Shown here: piece by piece, positions 45-5,657 of the stretch
How the letters are laid out: every line of letters starts with the position of its first letter
Numbering within the stretch: position 1 is the stretch's first letter
Notes under the pieces: model-generated
Database searches by the model: none
What the model saw: only the letters and a program-made list of their open reading frames with translations
Told to the model about the DNA's origin: nothing
Origin: Thermomucor indicae-seudaticae
Taxonomy: Eukaryota; Mucoromycota; Mucoromycetes; Mucorales; Lichtheimiaceae
Reading direction: 5' to 3'
DNA length: 22,556 bases
Assembly: GCA_000787465.1 (NCBI GenBank)
Contig: JSYX01000307.1
Span: 1 to 22,556 of the forward strand
Made by a program: the position numbers and the translations under genes

Positions 45-836
45 TTGAAAAAAAATTGCGGGGTAAACACGTGCGTTGATGGAAACAAGGCTAAAAAAAA
101 GAAGAGACCGCGTGTGTCTTGTTGCAACAACCATTGCGTCATTGCCACACCTAGCACGAACCCATTGCTACTGACAACAACAACGACACGTCGGGTACCT
201 GATTTCAATGGGGCTGCGATTTTAAACCAGCAACCGACGCTCGTCCAGTTTTCGTCATTGCTCCAAGAAGCGCGGGCCATTGTGCTCTTCTTTATTGGCA
301 GTGACTTGTAAGTTTTTTTCCTTTGGCCTCGTTAACAAAGGATCTTAAAAAAATAATGATATAACGTACGTGTTAAGACGACGCCGCGAGTGCAACTGGA
401 CCTTGAATACATTCGGTAATTCATCAGCCCCCTTTCTTCCCCCATTCAACAGCTCACACTGATTGATAAAGGGCCCATGTCGACCGATTCCGTGCCATCG
501 AATGATGCCGCTGGCCATGACCACCGCCCTCGTACAAGACATGCACGCTCTACCAGCAACACCCTTTCCCATTGGCGAGTCTCATTTTATTATTCATCCT
601 AATTAAAGTTTATTAATTCTTCACCCACAGTTTCAGACGCAACCAGGTCCATGTCGCGTTCACTCCACGTCCTTGACCCCGCAACAAAAGGTAGCACCAC
701 CACCACCTGCAAACGCGTCGCATTCGTCATTGACCGCGCGCGCCGCATCCGGTTCTCGATGCTCCTCGAAGACGACCGCATCCACCACGCCATGGACACC
801 CTCTTGCTCTTCTCATCATCCGTCAGCGCGCCATAG
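45..836 (+). CDS. Peroxiredoxin-like (AhpC/TSA fold) protein, exon structure incomplete
   Basis: Two segments look like the two ends of a thioredoxin-fold peroxiredoxin. The first (open from 45, ending at a GTAAGT donor at 310) contains a VPDF start and the strand AIVLFFIGSD. The last exon (631-836, stop TAG 834-836) reads SDATRSMSRSLHVLDPATKG followed by RVAFVIDRARRIRFSM, the usual end of such domains. A preceding exon ending at 574 (LPATPFPI) joins it through an intron at 575-630 whose donor is GCGAGT; the join gives FPIVSDATRS, which fits the family. The middle is unresolved. A possible 38-nt exon at 378-415 carries RREC, and an exon opening at about 472 follows, but the phases do not all fit. 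No in-frame ATG is visible at the 5' end, so the gene may begin outside the window, be misassembled or be decayed. The peroxidatic cysteine is not securely placed. Confidence 0.5.
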
Positions 837-2559
837 CAGATCGTTCATGATCGACGTCCCGCGCAGGCACTCGACCATGCTGCTCATAAACTCGCTCGTC
901 TCGCGGTGGTTGTGGCGCTCCGAGCAAAAGATAATCACCAGCACCACGTGCTCGTCCACGCGCGCCAGATAGTACGTGCTCGCTATCTTGCTGTCAAAGA
1001 ACTGGATGATCGGTTTTTGGTGGGGGTCATCTGCGCCGGCGCCGGCGCCGGCGGCGACGACAAGCTTGTCTTGGATAATCGAAATGATATTCGGCAAATG
1101 ATCCTTGGGTGGTTGCTGCTGCTGGCATACATGAGATCCCTGTGTCTCTTTCTCTTGGTACAGACAATAAACAAGGACAAACTCACGCTTGGCTGGCAGT
1201 AAATAAAGGGAAACGAATGGATGCCTTGGGGCGCCTCGTACGGTGTGTCGGCACACACATAGCCTTCGGGATGGAATGGCACAGACGCCGAAACTTGGTA
1301 TATGAAACTGATGCTGTGTGCTCCAGACCGTCGTTTAAACGTCGATATCCTAATGACAAACCAAATCCCCCATTGGAATCAATGTCCTTGCTGTTTTTAC
1401 CAGCTCATATTGAATACTTGCTGGTCATGGTAATCCAGCTGCACGCCTTTCCAAAGCTGCTTTTCCGGCTCTTCGTCCGACGACGCCAGGAGGCGTTGCT
1501 TGGACAACAGAATGGGATAAAAGTACAAGGTCATTTTGGCCACAAGGCTGTCGTGGTATTTGGTGAGCCACCGCACATGGTGCGGCCAAGACTCTCCACC
1601 TCCTGCTCCCGTTTTGGGGCTTTCCGTGCTGCCAAACAAGAGTGTTTTCCAGTAGGGACCTTCGCGAGTATCCTGACTTGATGTGGATGATTTCTGAAAG
1701 GGGGGAGGACAGCCGGGTTAGAAAAACTCCTGCTTCCCCTTGCTAATCGACAGAAACAGACAAACCTCCAGATAATCCACTTGCTGGCAGGCCTTTTTCC
1801 AATGCACCAGGTCTTGCTTGCACTGAAACAGGGTGATGCAGGCATCCTGGAACGCGTACTGGTCGATCCACTGCCGCGCACGCAACAGCCATCCGAGCAC
1901 ACGGATCTCCCGGACCACGCCTTGGCCCAGGAGTCCCAGCCGCTTGTCCAGCTGCATCCCGTCCTCGACCATCCTTTGTGCCGCTGCTGTCAGCTGCTGG
2001 TGGTTGTTGTCCTGACGCAGCATTGTCCGCTGCGCAAACAAAGACTGGTATCTTTTATGGAGTCAGTCAGTCAGTCGGTCATCGGTCAGTTCATTCACGC
2101 ATAGACGGATTCGGTTTACATTTCAATCAGCGTTTGCCGCACTTCGCAGAGGTCCAAGATGGCCTGCATCCCTTCTTGCTCTTCTGCGGCCAGGGACTTG
2201 GTCATGCTTGTGCGCGTGTCATTGGCCAACGCATGGTAGACCGAGGCCAACTACGATGGTACAAGTCAACATTCAAGTCGTTTTCAGACATGGCTCAAGT
2301 TGTATATATACTTGCCGAGTCTTTGCGCAGGTACCATTTTGATTTCATGAATGACAGTTGCGTGTACTGACTCTCGGTGGCGCAGACGCGACTCAACAAC
2401 TGACCGAATGCAGGATGCACCTAATCGTTTCATTGATTGTCAAAAACGAACAATTTTTTACTTCTGTAGACTACTTGCTCTAAAGACGCGCGTGGCCAGC
2501 CTGCTTGCGGCTGGGTAATCAAATGCACCCAGAGCATTCCATGCGTCGAGATGGGACAT
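816..2559 (-). CDS. KICS2: KICSTOR complex subunit KICS2 (C12orf66/DUF2003 family)
   Basis: Seven exons, read on the minus strand: 2479-2559, 2316-2420, 2120-2250, 1766-2051, 1401-1693, 1187-1349 and 816-1121. All phases fit and give 454 aa, against about 445 aa for the human protein as I remember it. Matching blocks run along the whole length: NALGAFDYPAASRLA (N-terminus), LRKDSLASVYHALAND, TLIEIYQSLF, VAKMTLYFYPILLSKQ, ISTFKRRSGAHSISFIY, GYVCADTPYEAPQG, LPNIISIIQD and IIQFFDSKIASTYYLARVD. In vertebrates KICS2 joins KPTN, ITFG2 and SZT2 to hold the GATOR1 complex at the lysosome, so that TORC1 responds to amino acids; the fungal role is inferred. Introns 1 (2421-2478) and 2 (2251-2315) both have GCAAGT donors, and moving to the nearby GT breaks the frame. 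The start MSHLDAW is chosen because the similarity begins just after it; an upstream in-frame codon exists but lies in low-complexity sequence. The stop codon lies inside the converging neighbour's coding end. Confidence 0.88.
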
Positions 2560-3139: not shown

Positions 3140-5657
3140 ATGGCTACCTTTCTCGATAATGCATTGACAATGTCTCGTAAACGAAAGCAAGAGGATCTAC
3201 CGACTGGATGGTCGTCGTCAGATTATTATTACCACGATGATTTTGACTTTGCGACAATGATGATGACGACGACGACGACGATGGATGATCCCGTCTTTCA
3301 ACAACAAGATACGACTCAAGGTGCCGCCGCCGCTGAACCTACATCTTCTTCTCGACGGCATTCGGTGGCAGTAGGCGAATTGGATTACCATTCATTTGAA
3401 CCGGTCAAACAAGAAATAGCAATGCGTCAAGACGAATTCCTGCTCTTTGGTGGCAAAGCACCTTCTTCGCCCAGCTTCTTTTCTCCAAGTTTTCTGGATG
3501 CCCTGAACGCGGATTTGTCGGATGATCTCTTGTCGACATCCGATGGTTTTACCGTCGCCCCTGCCGCTACGACCATTAATAATAACAATAACAGCAACGA
3601 CTTTTCATGGCTCAATCAGTCTCCTATCTCGACTTCTTCGCCATCTCCTCCCATCACACCCGTCTTTGAGGACCAAGAACAAGAAGAACAACAGCCATGT
3701 CTCGGCGCCAGTACTAGTAGCAACAGCAATAGCCTCGTGACCGCTCGCATGCTTCAAACGGCTGGTGAACTGCAACCCCATCTTCAACAATACCTCTTGA
3801 ATCAGAACAAGCAAGGTGAACGGACCGTAACCATTTTAACCAGTAAAGTCGCACAAAAGAGCTACGGCACCGAGAAAAGGTAAAAAAAGGCGAGAGAAGG
3901 AGAAAGAAGCTTTTCGTCTAACACGCATAAATTTAAGGTTCTTGTGTCCCCCACCGACGACAATCTTATCTGGCACTTCCTGGTGGACTACCCAAGATGT
4001 TGCGCTGAGCGCATCATCATCACCACCAACATCAACAGGCAGTGCGCTGAGCGCGCCGCCCAATTTGACCATCCAGATTTCAGGCGAACAACAGACCAAC
4101 AAACAGACGGGAGTCTTGGAATGGACCGAGGATGCCGCGGTGGGCAAATGCGTCTCGAAACACTTGCATATCAGTGACGCGGATGAGAAGCGCAAGCGCG
4201 TCGAGGTCTTGGTCAAGATGCAATTGGCCAATGGTGTCTCTCTGGGTACACTAGCCAGTAAAGGTATCAAGGTTATTAGTAAACCCAGCAAGAAGCGCCA
4301 GAGCGTCAAGAACATGGAGTGTGAGTTTTAGCATTTCTACACTGTCTTTCCCTTCTTACATTAACCATTCGATTCTTAATGATCAGTATGCATTCATCAT
4401 GGGACGACAATCTCCTTGTTTAACCGTATCCGATCTCAAACCGTATCGACAAAGTACCTCGGCGTATCGAATACCGGAGAACAGTCTGCAGGCACATGTT
4501 TTGTGGCGAGAACAGGATCCTGGGACCCGTTTGTGATTTGGATCGTCGACACGGCGCGTGCAACGGCTGCACCGGACATGGTATTACCGCCACCACCGCC
4601 GGCCAGCAAACATCATCCGACGAACCCTCACTATCCACCACCACCTGCGATCGCGTTACAGACCAACACGGATGAGCCTCTGGCGATTCATTACAACCAG
4701 GCGGTGGTACTTCAGTGCGTGACAACGGGTCTTGTGAGCCCGGTGATGGTGATTCGTAAAGTGGACAAGGGCAGTATGGTCCTGGGCGGCAATCGAACAA
4801 GTGAGCAAGGCGGTGGCGAATGCGGTGATGAGGCGCTGGGCGATCCTGTATCACAGCTACACAAGGTGGCTTTCCAGATTGTCCAAGATCCTATGTTTGC
4901 TTCGTTCAACAACAACAACAGCCAACATCACCACCTGAACAGCAGCAAGAACGAATGGATCCTGCCTCAGTCCAGCCAGCCCGTGACGTATCTGGCGTGT
5001 CTAAACGATGTGGTCGGCATGCACAAGACAACCACGCCCAGAACATGGATCGGCCCATCGGGATGGAACAATGTGGTCGTGGTGGAAGAGGAAAAAGAAA
5101 AGATCATTCGCAAACGACGCGTGTCGTGTGACGTGGTCAAACCACCACCATTGTCAGCGTCATTCTCGACCAAGTTGCAGCAAATCAATCAGCGACGCAG
5201 GGTCAATTCGTTGAGTGATGTGACGACGCGTCATAGCAATGCAGTGGATAACGGAGCGTGCTGGACTGAAGACGTCTCGGATGCAGCCGTATGGACGATT
5301 GTGGGCACAGACTGTGCAACCTACACCTTCTGGGTGCCTCCCTTTGCTGCTCCTCCTAGTCCGATCACGCCCTTCCCAATCGTTCATCAAGTGACACTAC
5401 CGACTGCTGGCGGCGGTATGACGATCACAGGCGAGAACCTGACGCGCGATCTGACCGTTTGGTTGGGTGACATCCAGTGCCCTTTAACGACCGTTAAATC
5501 ACGCGAATCCTTGGCTTGTCAAGTCCCTCCGCATGATCTTTTACTCTCCAGTCCCGTCACCGTGATGGATGAGGAGCAGGACACCAGGAAACTACCGATC
5601 CTTTTGGTACGAGCTGATGGCGTTGTCTATCGAACCACCCATTTCTACTCTTTCTAA
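3140..5657 (+). CDS. CSL family transcription factor (CBF1/RBP-J/Su(H)/Lag-1)
   Basis: Three exons (3140-3879, 3938-4320, 4387-5657) give 797 aa. The first 235 or so residues are a low-complexity S/T/N/Q/acidic region with a basic patch (SRKRKQED). Then come the Rel-homology N-domain (TVTILTSKVAQKSYGTEKR, CPPPTTI, KVISKPSKKRQSVKN), the beta-trefoil part (ISLFNRIRSQTVSTKYL, VIRKVDKGSMVL, DPVSQLHKVAF) and the C-terminal IPT/Rel domain (WTIVGTDCATYTFW, GGGMTITGENL, VWLGDIQC, ending at FYSF). These are the DNA-contact and fold signatures of CSL proteins, which recognise a GTGGGAA-type site. In animals they are the nuclear effector of Notch; fungi lack Notch, and fungal CSL proteins such as Cbf11 and Cbf12 of fission yeast act in cell-cycle, adhesion and lipid-gene control. 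The beta-trefoil carries a long fungal-type insert rich in N/H and basic residues (about residues 550-650). The start is the first ATG after the TATA box. Both donors are GT. Confidence 0.93.

What the first reader, a model, noticed from the sequence alone, without database searches (positions are those of the whole stretch)
816..2559. KICS2, a KICSTOR subunit, in a fungus
The model covers the human protein end to end at nearly the same length, with every exon contributing similarity. KICSTOR has been described as missing from fungi, based mainly on yeasts. If real, GATOR1 anchoring of this type is older than animals, or was kept in early-diverging fungi only.
Basis: partly seen in the sequence, partly recalled or inferred. 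Interest (0 to 1): 0.85.

Follow-up and report, generated by a model that had tools for sequence, protein, structure and literature searches.

The report
Fungal KICS2 gene, already reported family
The gene is a genuine fungal version of KICS2, a piece of the complex that in human cells ties a growth-restraining brake to the lysosome, but the presence of that complex in this group of fungi was already published in 2025.

The parts
816..2559 (-). KICS2 (C12orf66/DUF2003) gene, 7 exons, 445 aa
   Evidence: PF09404 142 bits; human KICS2 E 1.3e-22
2479..2559 (-). exon 1 (27 aa)
   Evidence: aligns with 16 fungal relatives
2421..2478 (-). intron 1, GC-AG (GCAAGT...TAG), 58 nt
   Evidence: no gap at the junction in 15 of 16 relatives (one lacks a residue just after it)
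2316..2420 (-). exon 2
2251..2315 (-). intron 2, GC-AG (GCAAGT...TAG), 65 nt
   Evidence: in frame; this product is one residue shorter here than most relatives
2120..2250 (-). exon 3
2052..2119 (-). intron 3, GT-AG, 68 nt
1766..2051 (-). exon 4 (helical part)
   Evidence: secondary structure of homologue model
1694..1765 (-). intron 4, GT-AG, 72 nt
1422..1693 (-). exon 5
1350..1421 (-). intron 5, GC-AG (GCAAGT...TAG), 72 nt
   Evidence: no gap at the junction
1187..1349 (-). exon 6 (YEAPQGIHSFP motif, shared with human as EAPKGVDQYP)
1116..1186 (-). intron 6, GT-AG, 71 nt; acceptor chosen among neighbouring CAGs by fit to relatives
816..1115 (-). exon 7, C-terminal part and stop
   Evidence: (E 7.2e-11 within this exon alone)

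Best explanation
It is an ordinary orthologue of KICS2 in a Mucorales-like fungus. Shown here: full-length family membership, the same predicted fold in its nearest named homologue, and coexistence with matches to the other KICSTOR subunits and GATOR1 in one genome. Inferred: KICS2 binds the C-terminal part of SZT2, and the SZT2-KICS2-KPTN-ITFG2 assembly holds GATOR1 on the vacuole or lysosome membrane, so that GATOR1 can switch off the Rag (Gtr) GTPases and TORC1 when amino acids run short, as described for human cells.
Against: No expression, binding or localisation data for this species. N-terminal similarity to human is weak pairwise. The fungal SZT2 matches human SZT2 only in limited stretches, so the GATOR1-contacting surface was not tested, and my by-eye splice of SZT2 broke frame. 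The ITFG2 match is marginal. No interface check was made.
Confidence: 0.9

Rival explanations
1. A true KICS2 orthologue whose complex has another job in these fungi (for example scaffolding on another compartment) and is not the GATOR1 anchor.
For: PMC11836306 calls its own fungal pathway model speculative; divergence of the N-terminus and of SZT2.
Against: Matches to all four KICSTOR genes and to GATOR1 are kept together in one genome.
Confidence: 0.08
2. A decaying pseudogene: reading frames with GT donors only do not join properly across three of six introns.
For: A draft without GC donors has extra residues at junctions 1 and 5 that relatives lack, and no GT donor in the right phase was seen by eye for introns 1 and 2. 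At junction 2 the product is one residue shorter than most relatives.
Against: GCAAGT donors at all three places give an open 445-aa frame that aligns through the junctions with 16 relatives and raise the Pfam score from 113.3 to 142 bits and the human KICS2 score from 54.2 to 83.5 bits.
Confidence: 0.02
3. Contamination by animal DNA.
For: The family was described as absent from fungi in 2017 (as quoted in PMC11836306).
Against: The closest proteins are Mucorales (51% identity to Rhizomucor pusillus with the draft; 53.8% with the final model); introns are 58-72 nt; the SNF1 kinase in the same window is closest to yeast kinases among solved structures.
Confidence: 0.005

Closest known systems
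Human KICS2 (C12orf66), KICSTOR subunit 2 (PDB 25gf_D, 9o5a_F, 9v6e_D)
   Same: Length 445 aa, PF09404 over most of its length, same predicted fold in the fungal homologue
   Different: 25% identity in the structural alignment of the homologue; pairwise sequence match starts only at residue 36
KICS2 homologues of Mucoromycota, as reported in PMC11836306 and found
   Same: 44-54% identity to the 12 Mucorales and Umbelopsis sequences compared, over 403-427 aligned residues (orders recalled)
   Different: Nothing essential; 40.5% and 41.6% to the two Endogonales and 35.3% and 32.2% to the two Glomeromycota sequences compared

Membership tests
KICS2 / PF09404 (C12orf66_like) | Pfam model above its gathering score | tested here: met
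   142 bits against cut-off 22, positions 52-431 of 439
KICS2 / PF09404 (C12orf66_like) | Same fold as solved KICS2 over the full length | tested here: met
KICSTOR complex | SZT2 and KPTN in the genome | tested here: met
   SZT2; KPTN
KICSTOR complex | ITFG2 in the genome | tested here: met
   27.5 bits against cut-off 27 for one exon, a second at 24.6 bits below it; 28.1 bits and a sub-threshold upstream piece of 17.8 bits in the expected order; marginal
KICSTOR complex | Its client GATOR1 (and GATOR2) in the genome | tested here: met
   NPR2 domain, IML1 domain; zf-RING_16 at three places (which GATOR2 subunits these are was not determined). NPRL3, the WD40 parts of MIOS/WDR59/WDR24, SEH1 and SEC13 were not searched for
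KICSTOR complex | KICS2 binds SZT2 and the complex sits on the lysosome/vacuole | not testable with these tools
   needs co-purification and microscopy

The most novel reading that the evidence does not exclude
The lineage of this fungus uses GC-AG introns roughly ten times as often as the fungal average, with an ordinary U1 snRNA. In KICS2 3 of 6, in the MCC alpha-subunit gene 3 of 7 examined, in NMNAT 1 of 6 and in the SNF1 kinase domain 1 of 8 introns begin with GC, plus 1 of 5 in-frame introns of NPRL2 outside the window.
Probability: 0.4. Interest if true: 0.4.

Novelty: already known. Interest (0 to 1): 0.22.

Why it matters
KICSTOR in early-diverging fungi means that yeast is a poor guide to how fungi in general restrain TORC1, and that a genetically tractable mould could serve as a model for the human complex. 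That point was made in print in 2025 (PMC11836306); this window adds one more species with matches to the full gene set, plus a splicing peculiarity worth a genome-wide count.

Tried and rejected
A first 467-aa gene draft, typed by hand, was used; the alignment showed extra residues, which led to the GC-AG model, supported. The homologue search was not repeated with the final model; one search repeated it with the alignment A2 (43 hits, again only the 7998 candidates sharing most words scored, so animal sequences may have been crowded out).

GC-AG controls. A count of GNAAGT followed by a branch-point-like motif and AG gave GT 16 of 128, GC 7 of 170, GA 9 of 136, GG 3 of 100: no GC excess. A first gene finder gave GT 22, GC 7, GA 6 among 35 introns. 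A second, with loose settings and any GN donor, gave GT 133, GC 45, GA 31, GG 27. A third, stricter, gave GT 42, GC 7, GA 5, GG 5 over 222,556 bases; it shows no clear excess of GC over the controls, and the KICS2 introns are not among the GC introns that it listed. These finders were trained on little data, so they neither establish nor exclude a genome-wide excess. The GC introns of NMNAT and SNF1 were noticed by eye through the motif GCAAGT, so the 8 of 27 tally is not an unbiased sample. The two further MCC introns (both GT), the CSL gene (its first intron read as GCAAGG, as GT by eye), and the other window genes were left out of the tally because their junctions were not checked against homologues. 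A possible GCAAGT intron in KPTN (L014) was read by eye only and is not counted. An altered U1 snRNA was tested and rejected for the two copies found: both start AUACUUACCU. A by-eye splice of SZT2 broke frame after 97 aa, so no SZT2 length or intron count is claimed; NPRL2 was corrected and is in frame through five introns, the sixth unresolved; the Pfam match covers residues 9-293 of it, so its fifth junction has no such support.

Literature. Listings for GC-AG introns in fungi or Mucorales showed no title on a high rate in Mucorales; passages were seen of two papers only, PMC7072748 (1.009% GC-AG in fungi) and PMC10639083. The 2017 KICSTOR paper was not read. Other listings. One search failed on a wrong frame. 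Not done: a rooted phylogeny of KICS2, searches in chytrids or amoebae, and searches for Sestrin, CASTOR, SAMTOR, NPRL3, TSC and Rag genes.

Full report
What is there. The minus strand of window 2559-816 encodes a 445-aa protein in seven exons. The protein aligns through all six junctions with 16 fungal relatives (16 of the 42 found); at junction 2 it is one residue shorter than most of them, and the acceptor of intron 6 was chosen among neighbouring CAGs by this fit. The protein scores 142 bits, E 3e-41, against PF09404. It matches human KICS2 at E 1.3e-22 over residues 36-427. A profile of 17 fungal homologues matches human KICS2 from position 18 to 439 at E 9.4e-57. The six-frame search gives one PF09404 place in the genome.

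Partners in the same genome. ITFG2: C349, PF15907 matches at profile positions 299-329 (27.5 bits, cut-off 27) and 264-301 (24.6 bits), and a sub-threshold upstream piece at 78-110 in the expected order; marginal but consistent. SZT2: C441:4579-4848 matches recalled human SZT2 at 34% identity, E 3.3e-7, and the 834-aa frame there and a 977-aa frame downstream match solved SZT2 at E 7.8e-9 and 1.9e-18, in the right order. KPTN: C86, 52% and 45% identity to recalled human KPTN over two exons, the second of which lies in a frame that matches solved kaptin at E 2e-9. GATOR1: NPR2 domain on C297, E 4.3e-36 (joined exons 322.3 bits), IML1 domain on C98, E 1.1e-47. GATOR2-type zf-RING_16: three places at 50.2, 31.4 and 27.6 bits, cut-off 27.4; one control genome, Corynebacterium glutamicum, rang below the cut-off.

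What is known. Barua, Plecha and Muszewska 2025 (PMC11836306; abstract, passages, Results part 1, the pathway-model section and Methods seen) report KICSTOR, TSC and Sestrin homologues conserved across Mucoromycota and other early-diverging fungi, with expression data, and state that this expands on the 2017 view that fungi lack KICSTOR. Their table gives PF09404 as the KICS2 domain. They also report more than two SZT2 copies in all members of Mucoromycota; one SZT2 place was seen here with a single human N-terminal query, which is no test of copy number. The finding is thus a further member of an already described set.

Mechanism. Shown: gene identity, homologue fold, co-occurrence of partner genes. 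Inferred from human work: KICS2 sits on the C-terminal part of SZT2 (of the two fungal SZT2 frames compared, the better match is to the fragment also present in entry 25gf with KICS2), KPTN and ITFG2 pair with each other, and the assembly keeps GATOR1 at the vacuole, allowing TORC1 to be shut off in starvation. Against: no functional data, weak pairwise N-terminal similarity, short SZT2 matches, a marginal ITFG2 match.

Splicing by-product. Introns 1, 2 and 5 of KICS2 begin with GCAAGT. The final model has 142 Pfam bits and 83.5 bits to human KICS2 (25gf_D), against 113.3 and 54.2 for the draft. In the same window the MCC alpha gene has 3 of 7 examined introns with GC (GCAAAT, GCAAGT, GCAAGC), NMNAT 1 of 6 and the SNF1 kinase domain 1 of 8. 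The spliced proteins align with solved homologues without gaps at the GC junctions; the third MCC junction lies in a poorly conserved stretch. Outside the window, NPRL2 has 1 of 5 in-frame introns with GC (GCATGT). The fungal average is 1.009% (PMC7072748, passages). The chance of 3 or more of 6 at 1% is 2e-5. Two of these genes were noticed through the motif, so the tally is biased. Results against: the branch-point count shows no GC excess, and the strict ab initio count over 222,556 bases found GT 42, GC 7, GA 5, GG 5. Both U1 snRNA copies found have an ordinary 5' end.

Verdict. Interest is low to moderate, mostly for the gene set found in one genome and for the splicing lead.

Noticed in passing
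window donors at 2478, 2315, 1421 (-), 11430, 10143, 9730 (-), 15137 (-), 13208 (+): Eight GC-AG introns in four genes (KICS2, MCC alpha, SNF1, NMNAT) out of 27 examined introns, against about 1% in fungi; the sample is biased and the genome-wide frequency unresolved.
   Followed up: partly
window 3140-5654 (+): CSL / Suppressor-of-Hairless-type transcription factor gene (TIG_SUH 91.6 bits, BTD 47.5 bits) next to KICS2, divergently transcribed.
   Followed up: no
window 8526-6534 (-): Long protein of Sel1-like repeats (label recalled, by eye; frame), with a 594-aa open frame on the opposite strand.
   Followed up: no
L036 1501-1665, L037 1501-1665: Two U1 snRNA genes that differ in many positions yet both keep AUACUUACCU at the 5' end.
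   Followed up: yes
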